This document shows positions 30,561-60,185 of a DNA stretch of 64,000 nucleotides, one piece after another; positions within the stretch are counted from its first letter, which is position 1, and every line of letters begins with the position of its first letter. The stretch spans positions 482,443 to 546,442 of the forward strand of contig JAHNUO010000021.1 of assembly GCA_019787685.1 (NCBI GenBank), given 5' to 3'. Under the pieces are notes generated by a model. It was not told the origin of the DNA. It did no database searches and was given only the letters and a program-made list of their open reading frames with translations. Origin of the DNA: Chiua virens (lineage: Eukaryota; Basidiomycota; Agaricomycetes; Boletales; Boletaceae). The translations under genes were made by a program, and so were the position numbers.

Positions 30561-30767
30561 TATATATATATATCTCTATGTCTCGCTGTCTCCGGTACCG
30601 CGCTCCGTCCCCGTCCCCGTCGCCTTTTTTGGCTTTTTTTCGACTCCGGTCCCCGCCCCTGCCGTCACTTCTCGACGTTCGTCTCTCTGTCCCCGTCCCC
30701 GTCGCCCTTTTTGGCTTTTTTATCGACTCCGGTCCCCGCCCCTGCCGTCACTTCTCGACGTTCGTCT
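30561..30767. repeat. TA microsatellite and 82-bp tandem duplication
   Basis: A (TA)n run near 30561-30573 is followed by two C-rich 82-bp units (30607-30688 and 30689-30767) that start GTCCCCGTCCCCGTCGCC and share CTTCTCGACGTTCGTCT. They are nearly identical. Non-coding. Confidence 0.8.
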
Positions 30768-30807
30768 AATAATCTTCCCCTCCGTATCCGTACCACTTGA
30801 TAGCCCC

Positions 30808-33030
30808 TGGAACAACCTAGTGGAACAACCTAGTCAATGGGGTGGAACAACCTAGTGGAACAACCTAGTCAATGGGGTGGAACAACCTTGTGGAACAACC
30901 TAGTCAATAGGGTGGAACAACCTTGTGGAACAACCTAGTCAATGGGGTGGAACAACCTTGTGGAACAACCTAGTCAATGGGGTGGAACAACCTTGTGGAA
31001 CAACCTAGCCAATGGGGTGGAACAACCTTGTGGAACAACCTAGCCAATGGGGTGGAACAACCTTGTGGAACAACCTAGCCAATGGGGTGGAACAACCTTG
31101 TGGAACAACCTAGCCAATGGGGTGGAACAACCTTGTGGAACAACCTAGCCAATGGGGTGGAACAACCTTGTGGAACAACCTAGCCAATGGGGTGGAACAA
31201 CCTTGTGGAACAACCTAGCCAATGGGGTGGAACAACCTTGTGGAACAACCTAGTCAATGGGGTGGAACAACCTTGTGGAACAACCTAGTCAATGGGGTGG
31301 AACAACCTAGTCAATGGGTTGGAACAACCTAGTCAATGGGGTGGAACAACCTAGTCAATGGGTTGGAACAACCTTAGCCTAAGTGGAACAACCTAGTCAA
31401 TGGGTTGGAACAACCTAGTCAATGGGGTGGAACAACCTAGTCAATGGGTTGGAACAACCTTAGCCTAAGTGGAACAACCTAGTCAATGGGTTGGAACAAC
31501 CTTAGCCTAAGTGGAACAACCTAGTCAATGGGTGGAACAACCTTAGCCTAAGTGGAACAACCTAGTCAATGAGGTGGAACAACCTTAGCCTAAGTGGAAC
31601 AACCTAGTCAATGAGGTAGAACAACCTTAGCCTAAGTGGAACAACCTAGTGAATGGGGTGGAACAACCTTAGCCTAAGTGGAACAACCTAGTGAATGGGG
31701 TGGAACAACCTTAGCCTAAGTGGAACAACCTAGTGAATGGGGTGGAGCAACCTTAGCCTAAGTGGAACAACCTAGTCAATGGGGTGGAGCAACCTTAGCC
31801 TAAGTGGAACAACCTAGTCAATGGGGTGGAACAACCTTAGCCTAAGTGGAACAACCTAGTCAATGGGGTGGAACAACCTTAGGCTAAGTGGAACAACCTA
31901 GTCAATGGAGTGGAACAACCTTAGCCTAAGTGGAACAACCTAGTCAATGGGGTGGAATAACCTTAGCCTAAGTGGAACAACCTAGTCAATAGGGTGGAAC
32001 AACCTTAGCCTAAGTGGAACAACCTAGTGGAACAACCTAGTCAATGGGTTGGAACAACCTTAGCCTAAGTGGAACAACCTAGTCAATGGGGTGGAGCAAC
32101 CTTAGCCTAAGTGGAACAACCTAGTCAATGGGGTGGAACAACCTTAGGCTAAGTGGAACAACCTAGTCAATGGAGTGGAACAACCTTAGCCTAAGTGGAA
32201 CAACCTAGTGGAACAACCTAGTCAATGGGTTGGAACAACCTTAGCCTAAGTGGAACAACCTAGTCAATGGGGTGGAACAACCTTAGCCTAAGTGGAACAA
32301 CCTAGTGGAACAACCTAGTCAATAGGGTGGAACAACCTAGTCAATGGGGTGGAGCAATCTTAGCCTAAGTGGAACAACCTAGTGGAACAACCTAGTCAAT
32401 GGGTTGGAACAACCTTAGCCTAAGTGGAACAACCTAGTCAATGGGGTGGAGCAACCTTAGCCTAAGTGGAACAACCTAGTCAATAGGGTGGAACAACCTA
32501 GTGGAACAACCTAGTCAATGGAGTGGAACAACCTTAGCCTAAGTGGAACAACCTAGTGGAACAACCTAGTCAATGGAGTGGAACAACCTTAGCCTAAGTG
32601 GAACAACCTAGTGGAACAACCTAGCCAATAGGGTGGAACAACCTCAGCCTAAGTGGAACAACCTAGTCAATAGGGTGGAACAACCTTAGCCTAAGTGGAA
32701 CAACCTAGTCAATGGGGTGGAACAACCTAGTGGAACAACCTAGTCAATGGGTTGAAACAACCTTAGCCTAAGTGGAACAACCTAGTGGAACAACCTAGTC
32801 AATGGGGTGGAGCAACCTTAGCCTAAGTGGAATAACCTAGTCAATGGGGTGGAACAACCTTAGCCTAAGTGGAACAACCTAGTCAATGGGGTGGAACAAC
32901 CTACTGGAATAACCCAGTCAATGGAGTAGCACAATTTAGTGGAACAACCTAGTCATTGGGGTGGAATAACCTACTGGAACAACCTATTGGAACAACCTAG
33001 TCAATAGAGTAGAACAGCCTACTACAGAAA
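30808..33030. repeat. 2.2-kb minisatellite with GGAACAACCT core
   Basis: About one hundred copies of a GTGGAACAACCT core joined by a few linkers. Up to about 31310 the main higher-order unit is ~35 bp (core, TTGTGGAACAACCT, AGCCAATGGG). From about 31360 to 32900 the unit is ~42 bp and contains TTAGCCTAAG. The edges are more diverged. Stops occur in all frames and no protein is encoded. The block marks the switch from CpG-rich DNA on its left to CpG-poor DNA on its right. Confidence 0.95.
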
Positions 33031-33088
33031 TCTTGTCAATGCAGTGTAACAATCTGATAAAAACAATGTCTGTATTACATAGCCACAA

Positions 33089-33309
33089 GCACATGTATTT
33101 CAAATACTTGGGCATGATGATAAAATGACTGAGATACTAGGCATGAGGCAAAATCCATGTAAGTATATTTGCATTAGTATATGGAATACTTATGGCAATT
33201 GATAGACACCAATTCAGCTAAGTTAGTCAACTACTAGTGGAAGCATATGATACATTTCACTTTTACTAATTGATAGCCGCTATCATAAATATATGGAATA
33301 TTTATGCTG
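33089..33309. repeat. Three diverged copies of the 24-25-nt palindrome
   Basis: Copies at about 33089-33115, 33171-33197 and 33284-33309 fit the pattern GCACAAGTAT, 4-5 nt, ATACTTATGC with several mismatches each. They are the leftmost members of the family that clusters around the recombinase-helicase gene. Confidence 0.6.
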
Positions 33310-33397
33310 AGCTACAATCACTTAGTAGAATAAGTCAACAAGCTAGCTATGGATAGAAGTATATAAACATGTTGACACAGACCAATCTACCACACAG

Positions 33398-33790
33398 CGG
33401 AAACCACAATTAGTCATGGTGAAATAAAATCTACTATGGACCTCTGGTTACCTACAGACCCTTAGATCATAAGATGTGGAGCACAGGATCAAAGGATATG
33501 GCCATTTCCAGGTGGCATGTTGATCAGAGAGGGTCTTAACTCGGTTTTTGTGGTAGAAATTCAAATGAAATATCTAAAATTCTGAAAATATTGTGGGAAG
33601 TACCCATGGATAGGAGCTAAAGACTGGTCCACTAAAGGACAAGTCTTTTATTTTTTCAAAATCAAGGCAACTGGTAACTGGACTGGTCAGCAACTGGATG
33701 CAACTGCAACTGCAGTCCAGTTGCTTACCAGTCCAGTCTGGTCCAGTTGCCAGTCTTTTGAGCAGCCCTAGACTGGACTTTGGAACACTA
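33398..33790 (+). mobile_element. 5'-truncated copy of the GTGTTT MITE
   Basis: Matches the 3' two-thirds of the full copy at 35741-36294, including TAGTCATGGTGAA, ACCCATGGATAGGAGCTAAA and the end GACTGGACTTTGGAACACTA. The left part of the element is missing. Confidence 0.75.
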
Positions 33791-33866
33791 GGAGTTAATG
33801 TCTGAGAAGGTCAGAGTTGGATTTGGTGCAATGGAGATGGTATGGTATATGACAGTGAGCCAGATG

Positions 33867-34486
33867 TGTCATCCCAGAAATCCTATCAACAAGTGCAACT
33901 CTCCTATTTAAAACTCTGACCCTTCAGATCTAAATTCCTGCAACTCCAAAGCATTCTTGCACTCCTCCTTCAGCTCCAGACCTCTAGACTTGTACTCTGA
34001 ATATCTCTTAGATCTCCTTTGTCCCTTTTTGTCCTAGTGTACATTCTGTATTCCTGTGTCTTGCTTAGGAGCACAGCTCCAGCTTTTATACATATCTGAC
34101 TTCTTCCAGTTACTTACTTTCCTGTCATCTGTCTTAGCTCTTTAGTCATTCTCCATTTCTCTGGCTTATTTATCTCCTAAACTCCTTAGTAATATCCTTT
34201 GATCTCTGAGTATATAAACTTTGTTACTCCTCTTGCAACTCTAGCTTGATTATCAACATACATGTAGATGAATCCTGCCTAATCATCCCCAAACTCCTAA
34301 AGGTCCTGGTGACTTCTCTTGTTCATCCTGAATTTCTCCAAGCTCCTTCAAACTATCTCTGTAAATCCATGACACAATGCTAGTAAGGGGGCAGCACATA
34401 AGCTGAACCCAATGTCCTATCTAAACATTTGAACTCTGAGATACCCCTATCTCTGGAGTACATTCCGGAGGAACATGGTCTTAACA
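33867..34486 (+). mobile_element. Old, CpG-decayed solo LTR of the 569-bp Gypsy family
   Basis: Begins TGTCATCCC and ends GGTCTTAACA. It aligns along its length with the young solo LTR at 29448, including the TATATAAA promoter box. Sites that are CpG in the young copy are TpG or CpA here, for example TCTCGCTT to TCTTGCTT and CTCCGGCC to CTCCAGCT. Flanks AGATG and AAATG (33862-33866, 34487-34491) look like a decayed 5-bp duplication. Confidence 0.75.
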
Positions 34487-34536
34487 AAATGATACTACTC
34501 ACTCTGATGAGACTCTCTGTTTGATGTGGTCAGGTC

Positions 34537-35738
34537 ACTGAGTGCTATTATTCAATTTACATTAGAGATGTAAGCACTAGTTTGGGTCAGTGGTGATTTA
34601 GTAATACTGTAGCATTGAATAAAATTGTTTGTCACATATGAATTTCACATTGATACAGAGGTTAGAATGCCATGTAGCTACACTAAATGGAGTGAGTATG
34701 AAGCATTGAGTCATTCAGCAGTGAAATGAACATGCCAGAGTCAATTTGAGATTGAATGGGGAGTCAGGTAAGAGTGGTAACTGGGACATGCCAGGGCCAT
34801 TTGATGTTGATATAAGAGGGAATGGGACTAAAATGAACTCAAATGAGTGAGTATCATGGGATAAATTGATTGGTCATGACACAAACATCTGTATTGAAAT
34901 TAAAATCCAGGAAGGGTTGAGGCAAGTGGGGTAACAAGAGTGTGTTGTGGTAGTTTTAGGTCAATATACAGGCAGGAACAGCACCTAAATTGAGAGTAAG
35001 TAGAGTGTGTACCAAGCAACAAATCAACTGGTTGAGAAATGAACATACCACATTAAAAATTGAGACACAAAGGGGGATAGAGCTAAGTGAAGTGACTGGG
35101 ACATGTTGGAGCTATTTCATGTTGATGTAAAGTAGGAATAGCACCTGAACAGACTAAACAGAGTGAGTATGAATCAATGAATTGATTGACAGCAAAACAA
35201 AACATACCAGAATGAAACTAAAAACCAGGAAAGGTTGAGACAAGTAGGGTAACCAGGACATGGGAGCCATTTTGGGTCAACATGAAGGTGAGCATAGCAC
35301 CTAAATAGACTTAGTAGAGTGGGCTCCAAGTGGCAAATTATTTGGTCATAAGAAGAACATGCCACATTGAAAATAAGGTCCAAGGAAGGAAAGGAGAGAA
35401 AAGGAACAACTGAGACATGTCAAAGGGGAGGTCAAGACAAGTAGGGTGACTGGAATGCTTCAGGGCTGTTTCAGGTCAATGTAAAGGTAGAAACAGCACT
35501 TAAATACACTCAATGGGGTGAGTACAGAGTGACAAACCCCTTGGCAGTACAATAAATATACCAGAGAAATTTGAGATGAAGGGGGTCAAGGCAAGTGGGG
35601 TGACTGGGATGCATCAGGGCCAGTTCAGGTGAATGTAAAGCAGGGAATGGTACCAAAATGGATTACATAGAGTAACTATGAAGCACAAAATCAACCAGTT
35701 GTAGAACAAACATACCAGAGTGTGTAACACCACGAATA
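34537..35738. repeat. Decayed ~156-bp tandem satellite
   Basis: Units beginning AGTGAGTATG or similar start at 34691, 34846, 35004, 35162, 35318, 35517 and 35671, so spacing is 154-158 nt except one unit of 199. Shared blocks are AACATACCAGA, GACTGGGACATG and AGGAACAGCACCTAAAT. A first, poorly kept copy may begin at 34537. No gene. Confidence 0.7.
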
Positions 35739-35740
35739 CA

Positions 35741-36294
35741 TAGTGTTTTAAAGTCTGGTCCAGTCTGGTTTTCCATGGTCCAAATGAGACAACTGGACCA
35801 AGACCAGTCCTAGAAAGGTCCTGGACCCTTCCAACCACATATGGACCGAAAAAAACTGGTCCAAAACAGTCTTTTGATCAGTTACAATCAGCTGCAACCA
35901 TTGTTGTTCCAAACTGGTCCTTTGACTCCTTTTGCGTGGGAACCATGATTAGTCATGGTGAATTCAAATCTACTATGGACCCCTGGATACCTACTGACCC
36001 TTGGATCATAAGATTTGGATCACAGGATCAAACAATATGGCAATTTCTGGGTGGCATGTCAGTCAGAGGGGGTCTCAACTTGGTTTTTATTGTAGAAATT
36101 CAAATAAAATACCTAAAATCCTGAAACTATTGTGGGAAGTACCCATGGATAGGAGCTAAAGACATGTCTTTTTTTTTTTGTCTAAATCAAGGCAACTGGC
36201 AACTGGACTGATTGGCAACTGGATGCAACCACAACTGTAGTCCAGTCCAGTTGCCAGTCTTTTGAGCAGTTCTAGACTGGACTTTGAAACACTA
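35741..36294 (+). mobile_element. Full-length 554-bp MITE (TA target, GTGTTT termini)
   Basis: Termini TAGTGTTTTAAAGTCTGGTC and the inverted GACTGGACTTTGAAACACTA, with TA at both edges, which fits a Tc1/mariner-style target site. The interior is non-coding and contains many short GGCAACTGGA / TCCAGTTGC inverted motifs able to fold. Partial copies occur at 33398-33790, 43614-43808 and 58948-59090. Confidence 0.8.
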
Positions 36295-36572
36295 TGAACA
36301 CACAATTGCAGCACACACCAAATATGACATCAATCAGAGGCACTAGCTGAGCCACATGGTTTTGTGCAGCACACAAGGCAGGTTTGTATTAATAAGTGAT
36401 GGTTAGAGCTGTAGCCTAAATAGCCAAGACAACCACTTGCACCTGACAGAGGTGAGACAAACAAACTATGTGAAAAAGTGTTGGATGGGGGTCTCCCATG
36501 GGGTTCTCCACAGAAGGTTGTGGAAATAGCCAAGACAGAAATACTTAGACCAAATAATAATAACTACCAGCA

Positions 36573-36825
36573 GCACAAGTGTATGAATACTTATGCTGAG
36601 GAGAACACAGAATGAATCAAGTATACTATTGGATGGATTGGTTGTACACATGTATGTATACTTGTGCTGTCAACAATTTCTTATGCAAGCCAGTGGTTTG
36701 ATCCAGATGATGTATAAGAATTTTAAGTAGTTACCTCAATATCTGTTTGAACCAGTTTACTAATATAGCCATACTAAAATTTCTTCAATCAATTGCTTGC
36801 ACAAGCATATGAAATACTTGTGCAC
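36573..36825. repeat. Three palindromes upstream of the recombinase-helicase gene
   Basis: 36573-36596 (GCACAAGTGT, ATGA, ATACTTATGC), 36646-36668 (diverged), and 36799-36825 (GCACAAGCAT, ATGAA, ATACTTGTGC). The last ends about 100 bp before the ATG of the gene and could lie in its promoter or leader. Confidence 0.75.
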
Positions 36826-36922
36826 ACATCGTGGGAAAATTATTCAAGTGGAGTTTGAATTTATCATAGATATAGGCCAACCTGTGGGAAGATATTGTTC
36901 TTTCTCCCACTTTCATACCATC

Positions 36923-39900
36923 ATGTTTACCTGCAACTCTTGCAAGCTACAATTTGACTTGAAGTCTATATATATCACTCACATTAGAAAATGTGTTCCC
37001 ACATCTATCTTTTTCACTCATACTAAACAAAAGGTCACTGTACAGAGGAATGAGGATGGTGTATTTCTTTGTTACTGTTCTAACCCTGGCTGTCCCAAGC
37101 TGACAGGTTTCTCTACCACAAACAACATGAAAAAGCATATGAAAAAAGTCCAATCAATTTGGGTGGGACCAAACAAGAACAAACAATGTGCACAAGTAAA
37201 TGAATATTTATGCACATCCAATCCAGTAGGTGTTCACTGATTTATAGTCATTGTGTCTGACATTTAATAATTTCAAATCCAGTTCCTTGATACTGCTATG
37301 CGATCTTCACCACCTTCTGCCCATAGCAATCACAATATGATCACCTCCCCAACAAATGTAAGCCATGTTTGTGTGCACAAGTATTCCATATACTTATGCT
37401 AGCAATAGCAGAGCCCCCAAGCCTCTCATGTAAGTGTATTTGATGTGCACAAGTATTCCATATATGTACTTATGCTGGCAATAGCAGGATCCTCAAGCTT
37501 CTCATGTAAGTCATGTTCATGTGCACAAGTATTTCATATACTTATTCTGGCAATAGCAGGACTTCCAAGCTTCTCATGTAAGTCATGTTCATGTGCACAA
37601 GTATTTCATATGTTTATGCTAGTGACAGCAGGATATTGACATGGGATCACCTCTGGTTATATCACCAAGATCTTTAACTCAACCCATACCATCCTTGATA
37701 GTAAGTTCATGTTCATAAACAAACCTCAGCTATGAATAATTTATTTTATAGTCTATATTAGAGCAGCAACATCGATCCGTATCAGCCACAAAAACTCCTT
37801 CACCACCACCCATTCCTCCAGTCATACAAGAAACCAGTATCAACCCATCTTACATCAGATCCAACGGTTTCCTCCGACACTCGTATCTTGACTCATTGAA
37901 TTTGGTTGTCAATGAGGAATTCTGTTTCCTTCAATGTCAGGAATGTGGCATTGCATTGTTACAAGAAGAGGCTGCCATCCACCTGATGCAAACACATCCT
38001 GCCATATGCATGGATCAAAACAAGTTCGCTCAAGCAGCCATGGAAGTCTCACTGGCTAAGAACTTTCCTTCACATATAGAAGGACCAAGAGACAATATAG
38101 ATGGACTGTCCATCCATGATGCTTTTGCATGCAACCACTGTTTCAAGCTTTACATGGCAGAGGAGACTGTACGGACTCATCATTACAAATACCACAAGGA
38201 CATTCCAAAGCCATCTTTTTGGAGACGCTGCAAAGCTCAAAGCATCCATTCGCGGCGAACAAAAGTTCACAGTGCTTGCCACCTCCTCTGGGAAGTGTAC
38301 GAAAAGGAAACCATTCAAGGGCAGTCTTCCAAAGAGTCTTTGATAGACACCCTCTTGAAAGAACTAGAGGAAGAGTTCCATATTCCATCTGTGATATCGG
38401 ATGAACGTCTAGTGACTCCATGGCTCAACACAACACGTTGGCATGAGTATGTTGCAGGAGAAAGATTTGATACCAAGTCTTTGTGTACCATGGTATCCAC
38501 TCCCAAGGACGATGATCTGATTCTGCCAGGTTTACGCACTGCTGTCAACACATATTTCCAAGAAGCATTGGATCTGTTGCAAATAACTGATGAGCTGGTG
38601 CTCAAACGTTTGAATTCGCCTTGTCCCCTTCAAAAGTGAGTCTAACAAACACTGCATGGCACAAGTATATTGTATACTTATGTACACCTTGCTCATCTTT
38701 TTCAAGTGGCATATCCAACACTCCACTTCACAAGCACATGTTGGACAAGAGCATGACCAAATATGTAGCACCAGTCATTGCCTTGTTGGTCATGTTGATG
38801 ACGATGGGCAGCGAGGACCTAGAGGTCAAGCAGATGGCCGAGCTCCTTTTTAGTGCACTCCCACAGCGAAAGGAACGAGCAAACCTCTCAAACTACATTC
38901 ATTGTATACTCATCAGGGTATGGACAAAGACCTGGAAGCGTAGCCCAACCACAGTCATCATGGACCCTACCGAACGGTGTCTGGCTCTGATGACATTGAA
39001 AAAAGATGGTTCCTTCAATGAACCCAAGCATGTCACTACAATCATTGCAAAGCTCGAGTACTGCATGCGATTGACCTTCTTGAGGGAGATCAGAAGCAGA
39101 GTGGACATTCCAAATGGAGTGGAGGAAGAGGTGGCCTGCGATGCCCTTCAAGATTGGTTCATCGAAAACAAATACTCCACGTTTGCCCGACTACGCTCCC
39201 TACAGCATCGTGCTACTGCCATCGTATATGACACGCCGAGCTTGCCTAACATCTGGTGGACAGACAGTGTCCACTGGAAGTCCATGCTGTTCAAGGGTGA
39301 ACCAATTCACTTTGATGACATCTGTGGCATGTTTGCAGACACAGAAGCCAAGCTGATTGAACTATGGGAACAAAAAATACTGGGTGGGCTGTCCTTGAGG
39401 GCAGAATATGATGCTGTTGCAGATGATCTTACCAACAAGGATGTTGGTTATTCATTCCTATCTGACCAGCGAAACAAAGCCTTTCAACAAAGAGGTCGAT
39501 TGGTCCAAGCTGCAGCCAGAGGAGAAGGTCGATTCAGACATTGGGCGAATGTGGTGAATGGAGAGATAGAATGGAACAAGGGAGCCATGAGGGCATGGTT
39601 GCAAGACTATGCTGAAATGCAACACCTCCTGCTTTTACGAGCAGAAATGCTAAGTGGGGCTCCAAGTCGTGGCACGGAACTCACTGCATTGACATACCGC
39701 AACACCAAGACCCGACCTACACGCAGCCTAGTCATGTTGGGCAAGCACCTTACCATCCTCTGTCAATACATGAAGACCACAGCACTCACAGGACAGGATA
39801 AACTCATTCCACATGCCCTGGATGCTATCACAAGTGACATTCTCATTCAAGACCTAGCGTTGGCCAGACCGTTTGCAGAGATTGCAGCACGAGCATGTTT

Positions 39901-42834
39901 TCCCAACAAGCCAGAAGTGAAAGAGCTATATCAAAACCAGCTCTTTGTCAACTTCAATCGGCTGTTTACAACTGACGATCTTTCTGGAGTGATGTCAAAG
40001 TATAGCCTTCCTCGTCTCAACTATGCACTGACGGTCAATCCTTGGCGTCATATGCAGACTGCCTGGAAACGCAAATTCAAATGCTCATCTGAGGCTGTGC
40101 AGGAAGACAACATGGTGGACAATGTTGAAGCCCTTCAGGCGGGGCATACACGAGCGACAGAGAATCGCATCTATGGTCTTAGCATGCATACGTTGGCTGG
40201 AGCACCAGAAGACATACTGCCATACTATTTGGAGGCAAGCACATTGTGGCAAAAGCAATGCCAAACAGTCCCAGGTGGAACCAACCTGCCTTATCAACAA
40301 GCATGTACAACAAGCTTTGTTAGCACAGCATCTTCAACCCATGCATGTGAGTGTATGAATGCTTGTGCATAATCACCACTTACACTCTTTGCAGTGTCTG
40401 CAGATCGAGTGCACAAGTATATGAATACTTGTGCAATACCAGCACCACCACACACCAATGCTGGTCCATTCACACAAGACATAGCCCAGCAAATTATGAC
40501 ATGCTTGATGCCCTCCTTGTCTAGTCTCATACAAGATGCAGTCACCAAGGCTTTGGATGATCGTTTGCCCACTCAAACAACCACAGAGGGCAAAGGCAAA
40601 GGCAAGGCAGTTGAAACCCTATTGGACGATGAACAGAATCCAATGCCTTTTGTGGAGGATGAGGAGGATGACATAGGATTGAGACTGGCTTTGCAACAAG
40701 AAGCAGAAATGAATGCCACAAAGAGATGCACTAACAATCAAGGAGAAGGCATGTAGTATCTTATGGTATTTCTAGAACATTCTGTGACATGCTCATTTCA
40801 GGACCATCCAAGTGGGCAGCCACATCCTCCAAACGACTTATGGATCCTATTACCTCTCCCTCTCCCTCCAACAATGCTTATCGCCATGTGCGTCAACGGC
40901 TCATGACAACTCTTTCACCTCCTGTCCCTTCCAATGGCACAAGTATCCATACACTTATGCCAATCTCTACCACTGCCACACTTGAATCCAAGGCACTGGC
41001 AACCATGAGACACCTTCTTGGAAATTCAACTGCCAACTGGCGCTCTGTAGAACAAAAACAGGCCATGTTAGCAGTGTTGAACCATCATGAGGATGTTATC
41101 ACAGTGCTAGCGACTGGCGGAGGCAAGTCCATGTTGGCAATAGTACCCAGCATGATGGAGCAATCAACAGTGACCATCCTGGTCTTACCGTTGAACTCTC
41201 TTATCATTGACTATCAACGTCGTCTCACAGGAATGCAAGTGCCATATCAGGTGTATGGTGAAGGAGATACAGAGGATGGACAACTGAGTGTCACCAAGAA
41301 CCTAGTCCTGGTGTCTGCTGACAGAGCTCAGACCAGTGATTGGCGAAATGCATTGTCTATACTGGCTCAGAAGAAGACTGTGGCACGCTTGGTCTTTGAT
41401 GAGGCCCACATTCCCTTGATTGCCAAAAACTATCGTAAAAGCTTGGACAACATCTATCAAATACGCTCAATCCCCTTGCAACTTGTGTTATTAAGCGCCA
41501 CTCTTCCTCCCAGCTTTATTCCTGAGCTCACTGCCTCCTACAATCTGCTTTCCAACACCACCATTGTCCGGCAGTCCACAAACCGACCAGAGCTTATCTA
41601 CATCCTAGAAAAAATGGCTTCTACATCTCTTCTTGCAAGAACCATGCAGATCTTGGAAGAAGAGAAAGACAACTGGAGAGAGGAGGACAGAGGGTTGGTC
41701 TTTGTGTCATCCATCGCAGAAGGACAGCAGTTGGCAGGTCTCACAAAGCATGCCTTGTATGTGGGTGATCGACAGAAGATGAGCGATGAAGAACGTCATA
41801 CTGCCTACAATGAATGGATTCAAGGATCTAAAAAGGTCATGGTGGCCACTACTGCCTTCAGCACAGGCAATGACTACCAGCATGTGCGCCTGGTCATACA
41901 CATGGACAAGCCGTTCGACATGCTTGACTTTATCCAAGGTCAAGGCCGGGCTGGCAGGGACGGACAAGTAGCCAAGTGTTACCTTCTTGCACCACAAGTT
42001 AGTGGAAAACCGAGCAGCAAGGAGTCTGGAGTGTTGATACAGAGCAAGGTTGCCATGCATGACCACATTTTTACGTATGGTCTAAAGCGATGCCTTCGAT
42101 ATGGCATGGCATTGTTTGCAGATGCGAAGGGATTGGCCTGTCGACAACAATCCAACAACCAACTGTGCTGTGTGTGCAATGGTGACCCACAACACAAGCC
42201 AGAGGATATTCTCATTGCTGGCATGCCACAGTCAAGGACAAACAAGAATGCTTTGCCTTCCATGTCTTCTACATTGGATATGTCCAATGATTCATTCATT
42301 CAAGCCAGCACCAAAGCAAAGCAAATGATGTCATCACATCAACTCAAACATTCAGCCAAGGTGGATGTTCTGCTGGTTGCTTTACGCCGCATGGGAGATG
42401 TTTGTGCTCTATGCAAGGTCCTGGATGCACAGTCCAATGAACAAACTCATCATTTGTTTAGCTGTCCAAGTCTGGGATCTTGTGCAGACAGTAGCTGGGA
42501 GGGATACAAGGAATGGAGAAAAGGTCTACGATATGCCAAGTGGCATAACAAGATTTGCTGGCTCTGTCATGTTCCACAACTGAATGACAGTCTACACCCA
42601 ACCTTTACAAAAGCTAACAAGGGCAAAACAGGGTGCGAGTTTGCAGATGTGGTGGCACCAGTCGCTTTTGCTATCTACCACAATCAAGCATTGAGAATAG
42701 CAGCACAACAACACTTTGAACAAAGCTGGACAACACTAGATGCATTCACAAGTTGGTTGATGGACAAGCCCAAGGTGGGAAGGGAGAGCAACCTCATAGA
42801 CTTGTTCATGTGGTACTCCAAAGAGAATCCATAA
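36923..42834 (+). CDS. Zinc finger - tyrosine recombinase-like - RecQ helicase fusion
   Basis: Five exons (36923-37225, 37752-38635, 38707-40346, 40395-40748, 40802-42834) join in phase into 1737 codons with no stop. Residues 4-24 hold a C2HC finger. Two more CX2C-X12-H fingers lie in exon 2 (CQECGIALLQEEAAIHLMQTH and CNHCFKLY...HH). Residues 717-885 carry a tyrosine-recombinase pattern: SRGTELTAL (Arg717), NPWRHMQTAW (Arg843), GHTRATENRIYG (His876, Tyr885). The His-Tyr spacing of nine is that of XerD. Residues 1163-1450 are a superfamily 2 RecQ-like motor: ATGGGKS (Lys1169), DEAH (1260), LLSAT, QGQGRAGRDG. The C-terminus has further CX2C pairs. RecQ motors unwind DNA 3'-5'; the recombinase part would cut and join DNA through a 3'-phosphotyrosine. 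Intron 4 has a GC donor. Helicase certain; recombinase call is from motifs only. Confidence 0.8.
37361..37632. repeat. Tandem ~72-bp repeats each carrying the palindrome, inside intron 1
   Basis: Palindrome copies begin at 37373, 37445, 37521 and 37593, spaced 72, 76 and 72 nt. The shared flank is AAGTCATGTTCATGTGCACA on one side and GGCAATAGCAGGA with CCAAGCTTCTCATGT on the other. The copy at 37445 has a 4-nt insertion. All lie in the 526-nt first intron of the recombinase-helicase gene. Confidence 0.85.
38659..38683. repeat. Palindrome in intron 2
   Basis: GCACAAGTAT, ATTGT, ATACTTATGT. It takes up a third of the 71-nt intron 38636-38706. Confidence 0.8.
40345..40435. repeat. Two palindromes at the intron 3 / exon 4 boundary
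   Basis: A diverged copy spans the donor of intron 3 (about 40345-40370). A copy with perfect 10-bp arms, GCACAAGTAT, ATGA, ATACTTGTGC, lies in exon 4 (40409-40435 with flanks), coding for VHKYMNTCA. Confidence 0.8.
40937..40961. repeat. Palindrome in the last exon
   Basis: GCACAAGTAT, CCAT, ACACTTATGC inside coding sequence (GTSIHTLMP). Together with 37188-37215 (CAQVNEYLC) and 40409-40435 it shows the motif read in all three frames. Confidence 0.8.
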
Positions 42835-43613
42835 GTATTAGAAATAGTTGTGCCAATGTAACTTGTCTTTCATGAGATCTGATGGTATCAACTCAGACAC
42901 TGCTGAGGTGTGCTAGAGAGAATCTATGCCCAAGGCACCAAGGACTTCCACTTGAGGAGCAGTGGACAAAGGTAAAGACATTGGTCAACACAACAAGAAG
43001 ATCTGCTTGATGAAGGCAGGTGGTGCAGGTAAGTGAGAATACTCAGATATAGATTGAATGGATCAAGACTATAGTTGTACATGAAGTAGTATTATTGAGA
43101 ATTTATATGGTGCAAAGGGGTCTCCCAAGAATAGTTCACCACTGATATCTGGAGTGACAAGGCCTAATAATTGCCTATAACTTTCTTTGACAGCCCATTG
43201 GATTGCTGGGCACCTGACAACTGGCACATTAGAGCTCAAATCAGCTTTACTTGGTGTTCATCATATTTGTGGTAACCACACAGGTATGGGTTGTTGTTGT
43301 AGGAGTGCAAACACACCTATGTGGTTATTCCCCATTTCTCCCACTTTCCACACTCGTCCTGATTGACACATCTGTGTTCACACTGTCTCATATTATTTTT
43401 ATTTGGTCATATCACTTTTTGTTTATACATTGCATAGGCCTAGACCCTGTTGCACAGCCCTTGCAGGGAATTCTATTATCCCTCAAACTCTATGCTTTAA
43501 GATTTTCTTTTAATTACACCTACTTAGGACAAGTCTAGGGGTATTCCTGAGGAGTATAAACACTCTATACAGACAAAATACAGAAGCTTTTGCCTGTGCA
43601 CTTCTCTATCAAA
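42835..43613. other. Intergenic region, no gene seen
   Basis: About 780 bp after the helicase stop, CpG-poor, with no supported coding sequence and no palindrome of the family. Confidence 0.4.
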
Positions 43614-43808
43614 TAGTGTTTCAAAGTCCAGTCTAGGACTGCTCAAAAGACTGGCAATTGGACCAGACTGGACTGGTAGGCAACTGGACTGCAGTTGCAG
43701 TTGCATCCAGTTGCCAACCAATCCAAGTAGTGTTTAAAAGTCTCGGTTTTTCATGGTCCAAATAAGGCAACTGGACCAAGACTGGTCCTAAAAAGGTCCT
43801 GGACCCTA
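43614..43808. mobile_element. Two partial GTGTTT MITE ends, side by side
   Basis: 43614-43731 is the reverse complement of the 3' end of the MITE (TAGTGTTTCAAAGTCCAGTC). From about 43732 a 5' end follows (TAGTGTTTAAAAGTCT, then ATGGTCCAAAT and GGTCCTGGACCC). This suggests two insertions or an internal rearrangement. Confidence 0.65.
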
Positions 43809-44028
43809 GTCTTGAAACCCGGCGTTACTTTTTAGGAAGTGGCAGGCTACACCCAAACCAAACACTTTCTGTAATGTCTGGATACTTTAGTCACATGACG
43901 AGCACATCGAGTCACACCTGTCAACAAAGTCCAATAATTAGTTGATGTTATGCCCATACTCGTAATTAAGCAAACTATTAATTAATGATATTGTCCATCT
44001 AATCAGGCCACCAAATCATGAACAATCA

Positions 44029-46801
44029 GTGCCAATGTTCCACGATGACAATGACGATGCAAATGATCTCTATGGCCCGTTCTTGAGCCACCATATCCCT
44101 GCCAGTCTTGCACACAACCCAACCACCAGTGCAGATCTTGACGAGCTCTTTTCTGGAGGCACTGCTGGTGACAGTGACCCGGACACTAACCCACCCTCCA
44201 ATCCATACACACCCGACACCTCCATGAGCACCTCGGGCTGGACAAAGCTGTGAAAGTGGCTGCCATCCTTGTCTACATGAACCAGCTTGGCCTCAACCTG
44301 CCTCTCTTTCTGGATCTACTCAGCTGGGGGGATCCAGACTGCGTCACTGATCCCAAAATCCGCTATAAGCATTCAGCACTCATGGTCAGCAAGGAACTCC
44401 CATCAATAATCACATGGTGGCACCAGCCACCACGTCAAATGAATAGCACACATGTACATGCGCATGGGGCAAGCACTGTAATTGAGTGCTTTGCATTTAA
44501 CTGTGTCAGAGATGTCATAGATGATGAGTTGGAAGGAATCGGGCATGTCCTACAGTGTCCAGCTGAGGACCTGTCCATGGAAGAGCTGTGTACATTGTTC
44601 GTTGAGGATCTGATCCTCAAGTTTAGCAGTCCCAGCTTCGGAGGGACTCCCAAGCTCTGGTTCTTGCTGTTACAGTTAGCCTGGACGGACAAGCAATGAT
44701 CCTGACACATTGCAAAGGCTCCTGACCTGGTTTGTAATTATATATTCTTTGCAACATACCCTTGTTAACAATCAATAGATCATCCTATCTATTATTTGCC
44801 AAATCATGATGTCTCGATCACATCACCACAACCGTTTTGCCAAGATGATTATAGTTTTTCTTCGAGCCCAGGGTACGCCAGCCAAGAGCATCAGTCTACT
44901 TTATTCCTTTGGCATAACTATGAGTCACCAATGGTCTGTACATGCTCTCAAGACAATATCACAGAATGAGATGCAAGTTGTTTGCAAATGAGTTCATCAA
45001 TATCCTTTTGTCATTACACATGACAATGTCAACATCCCCTTTCATGTCTATGCTCAGCAAATTGATAATCAAAGTCATTTTGACTCTGGTACAGCCTCCA
45101 CTGTGTTCTTCCAACCCCATGCTCCTCCTGAATAGCCTCTTTGCAACCATACCCTCCAAGAGTATTGAGCTCAGGGACGATAGCATCCCCTCTCAGTTCG
45201 AGAACTCTATTCACTTGCACATCAAGCTGCTCCTCTACAGTATCAATGTGATGTTCATCGTGTCCTCTGCTATCTTATACACAGTGTGGAATTCAATCTT
45301 CCCACTTACCATGACAAGGATAATAGCATCTTTATCCCTCCTGATCCAATCCAATCACTTCCCATAGGCAAGCACAATACTACTTGCTAATTCAAGCTAA
45401 TCTGACCACTTTCCACAGGCAAGGATTATATCACTCACCAGTTCATGCTTGGAACAGAGCACTTGGAGGAGGCTAGCTATGAGGGGAATGCCAATGTCAT
45501 TGCAGCAATCTTGCATCAGCTTAACTTGGATACAGAGCAGGAGATGAAGAAGACTGGACTTGACCGTGTACTGGTTTGGGCTGGTGATCAACTCACATCT
45601 GCTCAGTTGCGAGGACTCTTCCATTTTCGTGCTCAAGACCATAACTCATTTGAGCGGCTGGACTGGCTGGTTCCCACTTTCAGATAGTTCCATTTACTGA
45701 TGGCCTTTGCAAATTCCCTCCACAAGCAGTATCTAGGCACTATGGCAGGACATGGTTTGATGCATGCTTTCACACTACTTGAGAGAAAAGGACTTGGAAC
45801 AGTACAAACCTGTGGGCCCTTTCATCAGAATCTCCATGATGCCATTCTTCATGTAACTGAAGCTCATTTCCATGCTACCTGGAAGGCCATTGGAGGTGTT
45901 GACAACTTGGAGAGCTTACAATCCAAGACCCCAACACAGTTACTTGATCTAGCCAAGCAGATTGTTGACAAGTTGGCATCTAGCATTGCCCTTGATGCCC
46001 TTGATGCCCTTCCAGAAGATCAACATGACCAAGCATTGTATAACTCCATCTTGTGGAATTGAGATGCTCTTTGTTATATTGACCTCTATGAAGCTACAAG
46101 AAGTGGTGATGTAGGAATCATGGAAGCTACATTGCCTCATCTTGCATTTTGATTTTCTGGAGGCAGAAATAGCAATTATCTTGGAGAGATTTTGGAGCTC
46201 TTACAATGCTTGCATCATGAATGGCCACCTGAACTCTGGTATGATCTATGCAGACTCCAGTTTGTGATATTCATTTCATTATCAGTGACTTTGTTCAATG
46301 GTGATGTTGGCTTGTCAATATGAGTGGTCAACCAAACAAGTTCCTCCCATTGGATAAAGGGCAGGAGTACAATGTCAAGGCTATAAAGGTATCTATAGAT
46401 GTTTGACTTGAATTGGAAAAGATATAATAACTGATATTCACATCCACAAGGTAACTGATCATGTTCAGGGGCCAAATGCCTCATGGGATATATTGAAGAC
46501 CCATAGTCCTGCCATACCTGCATTGCATGCTGTCCGGAAACACTTGGAACATCAAATTCAAGCCATATGCAGAGGCATATCATACAGCAATCCAAGTCAT
46601 GACAAAGACATATCACGCTTGGAGGATGCATACACCAGTTCTAATATTCATGTTGCAGAGCCAGGACGCACAGTTCACACACAAAGAGATGTGGTTCAAG
46701 ATTTCATCACACAGGGTGCAGTTAACTTGGGGACAAAGGATAGTATAGCTAAATGGTGGGCAAAGCAAGATTTTACACGAGCAATGGAGAAGAAATGGTA
46801 A
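44029..46801 (+). pseudogene. DUF6589-like gene, broken
   Basis: Plus-strand coding remains in several frames. An acidic N-terminus (44029-44250) is followed by LLSWGDPDCVTDPKIRYKHS, a segment with QGTPAKSISLLYSFGITMSH, then HLEEASYEGNANVIAAIL, VLVWAGDQLTSAQLRGLF, FERLDWLVPTF, LMAFANSLHKQYLG and CGPFHQNLHDAILHV. This order, with a DQLT core and a later helical region, matches my memory of the agaricomycete DUF6589 proteins, which are repeat-associated and of unknown function. Stops interrupt the frame after LDWLVPTFR (about 45685), at 46060 and again further on, and a frameshift occurs near 45000. It is therefore a pseudogene. The tail (46490-46801, with AKWWAKQDFTRAMEKKW) stays open. Confidence 0.6.
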
Positions 46802-47098
46802 CTATACTGTCGAAAGAATACCAATGGCTATCTATGAAACTTACTCTGCTTGTCTTCACGATTATCATGAGATATACTGATCCAATGATTGGTGGGGAGA
46901 GCAGTGGTCACTGTGGGGTATATATATCAAACAAGATTTGATGGTCTTGCACTGAGAACGTGACTTGAGAAGCTATATTCAACTTGTGAGGGGATAACGG
47001 TGGGACATGAGAATTATCCGGTGTGAATGTTAGAGTGCCAACAGAAAAGCTACAATGTAGTACTATTAGTAGGATTTCAATGTAGCAGGGAAAACAAC
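46802..47098. other. Spacer between pseudogenes
   Basis: About 300 bp between the convergent ends of the DUF6589-like and RecQ pseudogenes. No gene seen. Confidence 0.35.
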
Positions 47099-49204
47099 CT
47101 ACCATCCTGTGCCAGGAATGACACAGTTCTCCTTGGTGGACTTGGACTGTTGCTGACACATCTGCTGTGATTTCTCATTGCATGCAGCCTTCTCAGTGGC
47201 CCACCACTCAGCCACAATCCGTCGTGCCTCCTGCTCAGCCACAATCCGTTGTGCCTCCTGCTCAGCTGCTTTCTTTGCCTCATACTCCATGTCCACCTTC
47301 CTCACAATGTCTAATACAGCCTCTCCATATTCCTCGGCAAAAACCCAGGGTGTTGAGAGGCTATTGCAGATGTTGTCGAGGGTGGTAATGGCATGTTTTG
47401 AGGCGATCAAAGTCAGAACTGGGTTGGGGAGAACAACAGCAGATGGAAAGGAGGCATGAGGAAAGTCTTGCTGAGCAGTATGGTGATGCCACGAGAAGAG
47501 CACCTGCCATACATCCTGCAGGTGTTGTTGAACACGGCGACCAGTTGGGATGGATTCGTGGGCAGGCTCAGTCTTGACAGTCATATTAGCATCATTGGAC
47601 CCCTTGGGAGACTTGGATGCTGGTGACAGGGCATGCATGGCTGCTGTGCAGTTATCACAGCACATCGTAGTGAGGGCTGGGAGAACAGCAGGTGAGAATT
47701 TCAAAGTATTAGCATGGTGTGAAAAAGAACTTACCTGACTGTCCTGGCAGGTTATCAAACAACATGTCAACTATCTCATGTCAACATCGCTGTGTTCCGA
47801 TGTACTCGCGCAAGTTTGGTTCCAGCTTCTTGCAGTATGTGCATTCTTCATTTTCTCCATCTTCTACCTCTGATTCCAATGCTGTTTCAACATCATTGCA
47901 GTTTCTGACTACCTTCAATGCCAACACCTCAAGAAACAACACCGCACGCACCTGAATTCCTGCCGACTGTCCCGCCCATCCTGCACACTGCACCCAAACT
48001 GTCAACGACTGTGGCGTTCCCAACTGCCCCACAAATTGGATGTCAGGTATGTCCAGTCCCTACATTCAGATTAACATTGATTGCCAAATGATACAGAATT
48101 CAGCTCATACCATGTCACCAACCTCCATCACCCACAAAATCCACTGCTCGCCCATTCGAAAGCATTCAAGCTCATCAGATTTCAAGCCGTCTGAGTGCCG
48201 CGAGTTGAGAAACCCGACACAAGAACAAATGTGAGGAGGCAATAAAGCCCATGAGTGTTCCCAGCCAAACTGTGAGTCTATTACCTTGTTTACAAAAATA
48301 AATGCATGCTCTATTCCTCTGCGCATGTAACCCCTTCGAATAGAAAGTCCAAGGAACTGAAGTCCATCACATTTCGAATGAGACAGACTTCTTGGTAGAT
48401 TCAAGTGAAATGATCATGATGGGTTGATATGTAGCAAATGCAGTATGCTCGGTTCCATAGTGGCTGAGGTGACATACATAGGGACATTCATTGGAACAAA
48501 CAAATGGAGCTTGTCGACTTTGGCGAAAGCCGGCTGGAATTGCCCACCCCATTGCACTATGCAATGGGCCTCGTCGATGACAATGCCACACAGGTGTTGA
48601 TGGTATTCGCATGAGCACAGAAGTGCATTGAAATGTAGGTTGGATATGGCCATCTTGGGCGATGTAAAAATAATCTGATACTTTTGGCCCACCAGTTCCT
48701 ATATTTCTTGGTGAGTAGATCATCCTCCCCGGTGCAACTACTCACCTTGTGCAGTTCACTCATGTACGCATTATGATTCATGGCGACAGCCATAATGCCT
48801 ATTTGGCTGCATCACCGAGCCTATAGGTATGTAGTAGTAAGTCCATCTTGAGGTATGTAATAATGATCGGCGCTGACCTGGTCCACCTTGAGGGAGTTCA
48901 GAGGAGAAATTACCAGCAATATTTGGTTGCTATGAATCATAGATGGCATGATGAAAGGCAAACTCTTTCCTGAACCTGTCCCGGCAATGATTGTACAGTC
49001 AAGACCGAGGTAGAAAGCTTCTGCAGCATTGAGTTGCCAAGGGTATGGTGGCTGATCATTGCATTTTTCTAGGCATGCTGTGGTCAGTGCTTGCCGTATT
49101 TCATGAGAGGAGTAGTTGGATTTTTTCTTGGCATGTTCCCGGGTGTGTTCTAGGTTGACATATGATTTGTCTCTCTGCTCGCCATGCATAGACACTGTGA
49201 GCAT
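47099..49204 (-). pseudogene. RecQ-like helicase, CpG-decayed
   Basis: Minus-strand RecQ-family gene of a different type from the fusion gene. Parts in order: IIAGTGSGKSLPFIMPS (Walker A), VISPLNSLKVDQ, GIVIDEAHCIVQWG (DEAH), YVTSATME, then RGIEHAFIFVNK and HSRHSDGLKSDELECF (second motor domain), a broken motif VI, and CCDNCTAA, the zinc ligand of a RecQ C-terminal domain, followed by a coiled Glu/Ala-rich tail. Frameshifts and stops separate the pieces. Motif VI, normally QRAGRAGR, reads QCAGWAGQ: every Arg codon has changed in a way one CpG transition explains. RecQ motors work in recombination and repair; this copy is dead. Confidence 0.8.
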
Positions 49205-49368
49205 AGCATGGCAAAATTTAGGAACTTCAGCAATTTTAGGTTATGTACAAAACAGGTATCTCCTCGTCCCAAAATATTCACCATCCATCCTGTTTTGGAC
49301 AAGAGTGTGACAAGTGTGACTCGATGCAATAGTCTGCGACCCAATGTCTCCAGATGTTTTGGTAATTG

Positions 49369-49937
49369 TGTTAAGACCGGGTCTACTCGGGGTATGAACT
49401 CCGGAACTCCAGAGTTATTCTTGCGGAGGGACTTGGCTTCACTGTGTGTGGTGCACCCTTGTCACGAGTCTGTCCTGTATTTTGGAGAATGAAGAACGGA
49501 GGTCAGAGGTGAGACTTAACACCAAAGTGAAGTCGAGCAGACACAAGACCGTCAAGGTCTTATGGAGTTCGGAGGGAATAGAAGGTAAAACTAATATTCA
49601 GACTGAGGGTACAAAGTCAGAGTACTACAGTTTATATACTTGGAGTAGAATAGAGATTAGTAATGGGGTTGGTAAGAAACTGAGTAAGATGGAAATTGGG
49701 AAAGTATGTAACCGGAGTGGAGCTGGGTATGTACAGAGGCTGGAGCTGTGCTGTTAAGCGAGACACAGGTTATTACTAATGTAACACTAGTATGAAAAGA
49801 GACAAGCGGAAATCAAGAAGGTTCTAAGTGAAGTCCGGAGATCAGGAGTTGTATCTGGAGAGAGATCGTACCGGAGTAATGAAGGAGTAAACCTGGAGAT
49901 CTCGGAGTTGGATCGATGAGATATACGGGATATGACA
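49369..49937 (-). repeat. 3' LTR of the Gypsy chromovirus
   Basis: 569 bp, nearly identical to 56161-56729 and to the reverse complement of the solo LTR 29448-30016. Followed on the plus strand by the complement of the polypurine tract. Confidence 0.93.
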
Positions 49938-50059
49938 GTATCCCCCCTTTAGGCCTGAACCCCTGAAGGCCATAAGCGAGAAACAATAGCTGTCAAAGCA
50001 AAGCAAGGTCAAAGCAGATTTGCGGACTTCAATTTCGGACTCAGATGCGGAGTCCCTCA

Positions 50060-50066
50060 TATAAAT
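50060..50066 (+). promoter_or_regulatory. TATA box of the antisense gene in the chromovirus
   Basis: TATAAAT, 39-45 bp upstream of the ATG at 50105, followed by a pyrimidine-rich leader. It lies outside the LTR, so the antisense gene has its own promoter. Confidence 0.6.
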
Positions 50067-50104
50067 TCGGGCATGCCTTCGCTCCTTAACTTCCAACCTC
50101 TACC

Positions 50105-51023
50105 ATGTCCGATATCGACAACGTCAAACAATGGAGCGACGAGCATCTCAAGGAGGCTGATGACGACAGTGACGAGCTGTTCGAGGCGAAGGTGTCCGAG
50201 CGGCGTCGATGCGCAAAAGCATGGAAGGAGGAGGAGCAACAGAGGAAAGCAGAGGAGGTGAGATGGAAGGCGGAGGAGGCAAAGCGGAAGGCGGAGGAGG
50301 CGCAGAAGGTTGTGGAGGAGAAGCGCCTCAAGGAGGCCGAGGAGGCGGCCAAGAAGAGGGTGAGTAATAGTTGAGTCCGAGTAGCGCGGAGCTGACGGAG
50401 TTGACAGGCCGAGGAGATCCGAGCGGAGCAAAGCGCTCCGAAGGATAAGGGCAAGGGGAAGGAGAAGGAGAGGGAGCCACGCGCGAGATGTGTAATGGCG
50501 GGGATTGAATGCGTTCCTGGAGAAGGGAAGAAGGGTCGGTCCTGCGAGGCTTGCCAGAAAGGCAAGCTGAAGTGCGAACTTCCAGGAGAGGAGCGACCAG
50601 AGAAGAGACAGAGGAAACGCGCGGACGACAAGGAGGGGCCGAGGAAGAAGAAGATGAGGTCAGCATCAGTGGAGGTGGTGGAGGTGGGGCCGAGCAGGGA
50701 CTGGAGCTGCGGAGACTGCGCCAGGAACTAGGAGATGGTAGCGGTCTGGAAGGAGATTACTACCGCCTTCAAGTTGCCCATCAAGCGGCTGGACCGCTTG
50801 ACGGCGCAGGTGGAGAGGATGGCGGACTGGACGGAGGAGATGGCCCATCTGAAGGGAGAGGAGTTGCATGGGGAGTGGTCGCTGGAGCCAGAGTCGGAGG
50901 AAGAGGATACCAACGTGATTCGGAGTGGAATTGGAGGTAGCGGAGTTGGGGCAAGAGCAGCAGGAGTTACACGACAAAGAGGATGTAGATAGGCTGAGGG
51001 AGGATCTGGCTAAGGGCAAGTAG
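50105..51023 (+). pseudogene. Antisense coiled-coil Zn-cluster gene in the chromovirus, lightly damaged
   Basis: Exon 1 (50105-50359) codes for SDIDNVKQWSDEHLKEADDD and a long Lys/Arg/Glu coiled coil. A 48-nt GT-AG intron (50360-50407) leads to exon 2 with a cysteine module, CVMAGIEC-X10-CEACQKGKLKC, close to the Zn(II)2Cys6 spacing but with the first Cys replaced by Arg. A basic KKK stretch follows, then a helical tail (RLDRLTAQVERMADWTEEM). One TAG (50729-50731) and one frameshift near 50925 break the frame; beyond them it continues to TAG 51021-51023. It runs opposite to gag-pol, between chromodomain and 3' LTR. Its plan (acidic/helical start, coiled coil, Zn cluster, NLS-like stretch, helical tail) matches the intact gene at 1992-3278. 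Probably nuclear; role unknown. Confidence 0.75.
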
Positions 51024-51057
51024 ATAGAAATATTTTGTTACTAAGATTTGTTCATCA

Positions 51058-51378
51058 TTATGCAGAGTGAGGTCCGGGTTTGTCCAGGTACTGCAGATGG
51101 AACTCCGTAACGATTTCAGAGGCATGCCCGAGTTCAGTAGCCAACAACCAAGAAGTTTCTTCATCAGTGCCTTCATAACCAGCCCATCGTACCAAGTACA
51201 ATAGTTTGCAATTTTTCCTTTGTCGATCTATCTTGGAATCAAGGATTTCGGAGATCTCATACTCCGGTTTGCTGTCTACTTCAATCGGAGGTGGTGGGGG
51301 TTGAACACGGTTCGGTTTGGTGTTTGGAATGCAAGGTTCTAATTGAGAGACGTGGAACACCGGGTGTACGGACTTCAT
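51058..51378 (-). pseudogene. Chromodomain at the C-terminus of Gypsy integrase
   Basis: HPVFHVSQLEPCIPN is the end of the integrase fold. YEISEILDSKI...LYLVRWAGYEGTDEETSW is a canonical chromodomain with its aromatic residues. It would read methylated histone H3 and place new insertions in heterochromatin. It ends at a stop just before the antisense gene's 3' end. Confidence 0.9.
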
Positions 51379-51598
51379 GGAGTTGGGGAGTCGGAGTGTG
51401 AAGGAGTGGGTCCCAGCTTGAGCGATGATGTCGTATGGCCCTAAATTCTTGTCGGAGAGTTTCTTAGAGGGCCGGGTAGTTCTGAAGTACTTACATAGCC
51501 TTGACGACTACCTGGTCTCCAACTTTGAAGTCCGGAGCCGGAGTTTGCCTGGCATCAGTAGGTCCTTGGTATCACTCTTGAGCGTGGGCCATTTCCTC

Positions 51599-52471: not shown

Positions 52472-52552
52472 GTGTACTGTGGCCAGAGGATCAGAGGGAA
52501 GAGCGGAGAGGATATCATTATGAAGGGTTTCGAGGTTGAAGAGGGTGCTTGC

Positions 52553-54189: not shown

Positions 54190-54204
54190 AATGGGAGGAG
54201 CCTT

Positions 54205-55964: not shown

Positions 55965-56160
55965 GGAGGCGGAAGGGGCGTGTCTGGAGGAAAAGGTTCG
56001 GAATTGTTCAACGAGTTCTGCACCTCGACAAGTACTTCCGTATTGTATGAGAGGGTTGAATCGTGGAGATATTGGTCATGCGCCTTCAGCACGGCTTCTG
56101 GATCTGGTTGCATGCATAGCCATGTTCAGTGACTAGTGACAAGTGGAAGTCTGAATATAC

Positions 56161-58805: not shown

Positions 58806-58838
58806 AGAACCCCCTCATGGTGGGCTCCAGTTAAAGAA
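58806..58838 (-). other. Isolated retroelement leader motif
   Basis: On the minus strand, AACTGGAGCCCACC followed by a G-rich tract closely matches the sequence just inside the 5' LTR of the gag-only element (near 6150). It is probably a remnant of a related insertion. Confidence 0.35.
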
Positions 58839-58947
58839 AACAAATATTGTTGATATAAAGAATTACAAGAACAACAATAGACTAATTACAGTACCTTAGA
58901 TACTTAACCTGATCACTTAGGACCAGTGCTCAGCAGACCAGTCCGGA

Positions 58948-60122: not shown

Positions 60123-60185
60123 TACAGCATAGGCGATATCCAGTCATGTGCCAATCATAAGATATATTAATGAGCCTATCACTGT

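What the first reader, a model, noticed from the sequence alone, without database searches (positions are those of the whole stretch)
36923..42834. Single gene joining zinc fingers, a tyrosine-recombinase-like domain and a RecQ helicase
Five exons join in phase to 1737 codons without a stop. Between zinc fingers and a full RecQ motor lies a 550-residue region that would normally be called unknown. It has the three landmarks of tyrosine recombinases in order: R-G-T-E-L-T-A-L (compare the R-x-S-E-L-x-A-L Arg-I box), W-R-H-M-Q-T-A-W (Arg-II box; the usual preceding His is Asn) and G-H-T-x6-I-Y (His and Tyr nine apart, as in XerD). Tyrosine recombinases mobilise Cryptons and Starships in fungi, and RecQ-like genes are known near fungal telomeres. 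One protein holding both would be a self-contained cut-and-unwind machine. The intact frame in otherwise decayed DNA argues for recent activity or selection.
Basis: partly seen in the sequence, partly recalled or inferred. Interest (0 to 1): 0.87.

Follow-up and report, generated by a model that had tools for sequence, protein, structure and literature searches.

The report
Recombinase-helicase gene of a giant transposon
In what appears to be a mushroom-type fungus, one gene that joins a DNA-cutting recombinase to a DNA-unwinding helicase sits just inside one end of a repeated DNA block of about 35,000 bases that looks mobile, which may help explain why helicase genes crowd fungal chromosome ends.

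The parts
30767..64000 (+). Repeated block (element A), cut off by the end of contig C21; in sister copy C36 the block runs C36:52988-88027, about 35.0 kb
   Evidence: Sharp left end with unrelated flanks; collinear with C36, C40 and C51; right end seen in C36 and C51 only
30766..30780 (+). Left junction and core: target C, then TAATAATCTTCCCC
   Evidence: 8 of 8 left ends of family A follow a C; core shared with families B and C
30808..33050 (+). Tandem array just inside the left end (units around GTGGAACAACCTAGTCAATGGG)
   Evidence: Self-matching BLAST ladder, sequence
36923..37195 (+). Exon 1: Cys/His-rich N-terminus
   Evidence: Open frame; 34-38% identical in five relatives
37283..37357 (+). 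Exon 2 (model)
   Evidence: In phase
37752..38635 (+). Exon 3: OrsD-like region
   Evidence: OrsD E 8e-5, under cut-off; 28-35% identical in five relatives
38707..40346 (+). Exon 4: YR region; catalytic domain about 39239-40273
   Evidence: Models and structural comparison
39668..39670 (+). Arg-I, R732
   Evidence: 82 of 87
39773..39775 (+). Lys, K767
   Evidence: Invariant in alignments A1 and A2
40046..40048 (+). Arg-II, R858
   Evidence: 81 of 85
40145..40147 (+). His, H891
   Evidence: 91 of 93
40172..40174 (+). Tyr nucleophile (inferred), Y900
   Evidence: 93 of 93
40395..40748 (+). Exon 5: linker, not conserved
   Evidence: No match in five relatives
40802..42834 (+). Exon 6: RecQ-like helicase and C-terminal part
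   Evidence: DEAD and Helicase_C; BLM, WRN, RECQ5; GC-AG joint at 40749-40801 inferred
45181..46236 (+). Passenger gene, DUF6589, with stops (some may be introns)
49369..56731 (-). Nested LTR element (LTRs 95.1% alike; integrase domains in between)
60787..64000 (-). Nested copia-type element, where contigs C21 and C40 both stop

Best explanation
The gene is the captain (self-encoded recombinase) of a large cargo-carrying transposon. Proposed working: the N-terminal Cys/His and OrsD-like parts bind the element's end or its subterminal arrays (inferred). The YR domain uses Arg, Lys, Arg and His around Tyr900 to cut at the left-end core C|TAATAATCT and at the right end, and joins both ends at a C in the target (the ends, the C and the unoccupied targets are shown; the cutting chemistry is inferred). 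The fused RecQ motor opens or branch-migrates the joined DNA so that a 35-kb block can be resolved or copied (inferred). The block spreads with its passengers.
For: YR fold and five conserved residues. 15 of 15 strong YR loci in the genome have RecQ just downstream. Four copies with base-sharp left ends, two with the same sharp right end; eight left ends, all after C. Core upstream of the captain, same orientation, in 10 of 15 captain loci over three families. Unoccupied left sites 7 of 8 and right sites 2 of 2, all C just before the junction. Passengers shared by all four copies. Intact frames and reduced amino-acid change.
Against: Left and right flanks of both complete copies come from different loci. 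Only two right ends are assembled against eight left ends. Ends share no inverted or direct repeat above chance. Five of 15 captain loci show neither exact core motif searched. No sequence profile recognises a YR. Excision, splicing and activity untested.
Confidence: 0.72

Rival explanations
1. A subtelomeric RecQ gene of the telomere-linked helicase kind that spreads passively when chromosome ends exchange segments; the YR domain binds DNA but moves nothing.
For: Copies of the flanks of C36, C40, C21 and C5 lie 1-61 kb from the telomeric end of C9; flanks of both complete copies are mismatched; subtelomeric RecQ genes are known in Agaricus and Ustilago.
Against: Base-sharp ends at one sequence with unrelated flanks and readable unoccupied sites; the same core in three families; recombinase residues kept.
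Confidence: 0.15
2. A copy-out (one-ended or rolling) element in which the RecQ motor drives strand displacement and the YR only nicks or resolves, so that the right end is often lost.
For: Eight left ends against two right ends; mismatched flanks; C29 keeps only about 80 bases of the left end.
Against: Both right ends stop at the same base and have unoccupied sites with C before the junction; C21 and C40 stop inside a repeat, which explains two missing right ends.
Confidence: 0.1
3. The middle region only resembles a YR by chance and has another fold.
For: No library or single-sequence search finds a YR; Foldseek E is 0.03 at best.
Against: Ranks 1-48 and 1-25 are YRs or type IB topoisomerases; Lys, His and Tyr invariant in 56 rows.
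Confidence: 0.03

Closest known systems
Starships (giant YR transposons, DUF3435 captain)
   Same: Large block with passengers; YR gene first from one end, pointing inward; recombinase fold
   Different: No DUF3435 match; captain fused to a RecQ-like helicase and an OrsD-like part; described mainly from Pezizomycotina (PMC12134995, passages), with one report from a basidiomycete, Tremella (PMC13066641, passages)
Cryptons
   Same: YR element without terminal inverted repeats
   Different: No GCR1_C match; about 35 kb with passengers; at most one shared base at the junctions, where fungal Cryptons have 4-6 bp direct repeats (PMC3212892, passages)
Subtelomeric (telomere-linked) RecQ helicase genes of fungi
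   Same: RecQ-like motor, multicopy, target flanks partly subtelomeric; OrsD is reported in Ustilago UTASb (PMC10532341, passages)
   Different: The Agaricus paper reports no domain beyond the helicase core (PMC7473861, passages); here a YR domain and element ends are present
Xer, Cre and lambda-integrase tyrosine recombinases
   Same: Fold and order of Arg, Lys, Arg, His, Tyr; His and Tyr nine apart
   Different: HII position is Asn; beyond the reach of the profile libraries used; fused to a helicase

Membership tests
Tyrosine recombinase superfamily | YR catalytic fold | tested here: met
Tyrosine recombinase superfamily | Catalytic Arg, Lys, Arg, His, Tyr | tested here: met
   All five in 74 of 93 homologues
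Tyrosine recombinase superfamily | DNA cleavage through the Tyr | not testable with these tools
   Needs a bench assay
Starship | Captain with DUF3435 (PF11917) | tested here: not met
   No Pfam match at E <= 1 for the YR frame, nor DUF3435 among the families listed for 26 long homologues at E <= 0.1
Starship | YR gene first at one end, with cargo | tested here: met
   Left end 6.2 kb upstream of the gene, passengers downstream
Starship | Flanking direct repeats, sometimes inverted repeats | tested here: inconclusive
   At most one shared base (C) at the junctions; no repeat between the ends above chance
Crypton | YR with GCR1_C domain (fungal group) | tested here: not met
   No GCR1_C among the Pfam matches
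Crypton | 4-6 bp terminal direct repeats | tested here: not met
   Only C is shared at all junctions read
RecQ helicase family | SF2 motor motifs | tested here: met
   DEAD and Helicase_C over cut-off; best solved relatives BLM, WRN, RECQ5
RecQ helicase family | Curated RecQ family cut-off | tested here: not met
   TIGR00614 121.6 bits against a cut-off of 219.8
Telomere-linked RecQ genes | Subtelomeric location | tested here: inconclusive
   Copies of four target flanks lie 1-61 kb from the C9 telomere, but no captain copy is tied to a telomere, and a family-C captain lies about 159 kb from the C4 telomere

The most novel reading that the evidence does not exclude
A new superfamily of giant YR transposons in mushroom-forming fungi, moved by a single fused YR-RecQ captain that acts at a family-spanning core C|TAATAATCT and inserts after a C, often in subtelomeric repeats; many 'subtelomeric RecQ helicase' genes of mushrooms are captains or remains of such elements rather than telomere-maintenance genes.
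Probability: 0.5. Interest if true: 0.9.

Novelty: new variant of a known kind. Interest (0 to 1): 0.82.

Why it matters
A recombinase and a helicase in one polypeptide is, as far as I recall, not described for a eukaryotic transposon; ten paper searches showed no report of it (open-licence PMC papers only, mostly seen as listings). If right, it adds to the few giant YR elements known outside the Pezizomycotina, gives a concrete end sequence to look for in other genomes, and offers a testable answer to why RecQ genes multiply at fungal chromosome ends.

Tried and rejected
Rejected: chance motif (structure and conservation). Not filed as Starship or Crypton (marker domains not found). Considered and not favoured: Helitron proper (termini differ from the recalled TC...CTRR). 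TTAGGG x3 gave no match; the end repeat is TTAGG. A homologue search from the most distant member, P0093, found only itself; one from P0082 gave 44 proteins, the named ones all from Agaricomycetes by genus name as I recall, so presence in Ascomycota or Ustilago is untested. Right ends of families B and C could not be fetched. One search was a faulty script, replaced. Tools not used: viral fold library, promoter scan, Rfam, PADLOC, viral contigs and genome-contig scans, tree building.

Full report
WHAT THE SEQUENCE SHOWS. Joining them over introns 37196-37282, 37358-37751, 38636-38706, 40347-40394 and 40749-40801 gives one frame of 1752 residues. The last intron is GC-AG; no GT-AG intron of 40-160 bases joins the middle exon to the helicase exon in phase, so this joint is the weakest part of the model. 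Many homologues are annotated as one protein: of 26 long ones scanned, 25 match DEAD, 25 Helicase_C and 20 OrsD at E <= 0.1.

CATALYTIC RESIDUES. Of homologues with a residue at the place: R732 82 of 87, R858 81 of 85, H891 91 of 93, Y900 93 of 93. R, K, R, H and Y stand together in 74 of 93; 19 lack at least one by gap or change. In 26 long proteins the first Arg, the His and the Tyr are invariant, the Lys and second Arg are in the 90% class, and helicase GK and DE residues are invariant too. The position before Arg-II is Asn in the window and in all five own-genome relatives checked.

THE HELICASE. DEAD and Helicase_C pass their cut-offs; the best solved relatives are BLM, WRN and RECQ5. It scores under NCBIfam's RecQ cut-off (121.6 against 219.8 bits), so 'RecQ-like' is the right word.

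FUSION. In this genome 15 distinct loci match the YR region at E below 1e-20, and all 15 have a RecQ match within about 1 kb downstream on the same strand (counted). A distant locus (C12:32216-34135) has both matches in the same frame, each reported with a 725-aa open frame. Nine weak YR loci have no RecQ match within 5 kb: C30:320882, C14:29294, C79:36191, C21:40648, C2:2866908, C63:55096, C47:86187, C53:31193, C13:1052282. Several copies outside family A carry stops.

THE BLOCK AROUND IT. The four copies of the gene differ at 32 sites without an indel; their surroundings align to the window at 96.8, 96.9 and 98.0% over about 25 kb. Four loci change to unrelated sequence just before TAATAATCTTCCCC (window 30767); four more left ends lie at C10:3025, C5:2550, C29:340213 and C10:63448, and a more distant one at C4:2633510. 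On the right, C36 and C51 run together and part after ...GACTGCATGGGTATAC, about 35.0 kb from the left end. C21 (the window) and C40 stop at one and the same base inside a nested copia-type element, which reads as an assembly break. That element and a nested LTR element (LTRs 95.1% alike) lie at the same places in the copies, so they rode along. A DUF6589 gene with stops follows the captain in all four copies and lies near none of the other strong captain loci.

A CORE SHARED BY THREE FAMILIES. Captains of families B (C24, C10) and C (C66, C23, C4, C30) are 43-48% identical to the window's in the YR part. Their left ends begin with the same C|TAATAATCT. TAATAATCTTCCCC occurs 21 times in 48 Mb, its reversed control 0 times; 20 of the 21 follow a C, though 11 of the 21 are units of two tandem arrays. 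Arrays differ by family: 2.2 kb in A, 49- and 67-base units in B, 165-base units in C. Ten of the 15 strong captain loci have the core upstream in the same orientation; the other five (C8, C12:1628697, C124, C24:450656, C18) have neither exact motif nearby.

TARGET SITES. The flanks are themselves repeats, so unoccupied versions could be read for the left ends of C36 (C9, C79, C83, 100% alike to the junction), C51, C40, C5, C10:3025, C29 and C21 (the copies for C10:3025 and C21 differ by a base near the junction). In 7 of 7 the break follows C; the next base is T in 6 and A in 1. None was found for C10:63448. All eight left ends follow C, about 1e-5 by chance at a base frequency of 0.24. Both right-end unoccupied sites, C18 for C36 and C36:95254 for C51, have C before the junction.

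RESULTS AGAINST. In C36 and in C51 the left and right flanks come from different places: what follows the empty left site is not the right flank. Recombination between copies or an assembler's wrong turn would do this; so would a one-ended mechanism. Only two right ends are assembled. The ends share no repeat above chance. The telomere link is partial: flank copies lie 1-61 kb from the (TTAGG)n end of C9, but the C21 flank is a repeat found in many places; a left end lies 2.1 kb from the telomeric end of C4; no captain copy is tied to a telomere.

SELECTION. Of 31 variable coding sites, 17 are non-synonymous, about 24 expected (P = 0.0036); the copies are related, so the P value is approximate.

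WHAT IS KNOWN. Starships have a DUF3435 captain at one end (PMC12134995, passages); Cryptons a YR and short terminal direct repeats (PMC3212892, passages). Subtelomeric RecQ genes are described in Ustilago and Agaricus, and the passages seen mention no recombinase (PMC10532341, PMC7593156, PMC7473861). Eight Starships are reported in the basidiomycete Tremella with the Starfish pipeline (PMC13066641, passages), so giant YR elements in basidiomycetes as such are not new. A screen of co-opted fungal elements (PMC10799480) names RecQ and tyrosine recombinases only in its references. No listing among ten searches named a YR-RecQ fusion; subscription papers and preprints were not searchable.

VERDICT. 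A YR-RecQ fusion gene, with strong support for the recombinase by fold and residues, and most likely the captain of a new group of large fungal YR elements. Shown: ends, core, target base, copies. Inferred: cutting, excision or copying, the helicase's part, and the last splice.

Noticed in passing
G000 C9:1961455-1961657, C4:2635405-2635601; also C1:3583845-3584021 and C11:1925320-1925471: Telomere-type repeat (TTAGG)n at the ends of C9 and C4 (sequence seen) and arrays near 3.584 Mb of C1 and 1.925 Mb of C11; TTAGGG x3 does not occur. TTAGG is known to me from insects; in a fungus it is unusual (recalled)..
   Followed up: partly
window 37376, 38660, 40411, 40938: Near-palindromes of the form CACAAGTAT...ATACTTGTG lie only in this gene within the window, two in introns and two in exons; 20 shuffles gave none. 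Looser forms are visible elsewhere in the block.
   Followed up: partly
L031, L036-L043 (C10:61855-62260); L049-L051 (C48:106944-107091): Left-end cores repeated head to tail in 49- and 67-base units; in C10 the array lies inside a remnant of a family-A left end. Repeated integration at ends is one possible cause.
   Followed up: partly
C9:1928733-1930101, C36:51655-52933, C79:44949-46317, C83:11275-12694: A second RecQ-like family, about 30% identical to the window's helicase, in a repeated region that includes the telomeric end of C9; the C36 copy is cut by the family-A block.
   Followed up: partly
C30:320882, C14:29294, C79:36191, C21:40648, C2:2866908, C63:55096, C47:86187, C53:31193, C13:1052282: Weak YR matches without a RecQ match nearby, several in open frames of 350-490 residues; perhaps solo relatives of the YR part.
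   Followed up: no
window 282-1100 (-) and 8623-9441 (+): Two 273-residue frames that begin with the same 25 residues, on opposite strands about 8 kb apart, left of the block.
   Followed up: no
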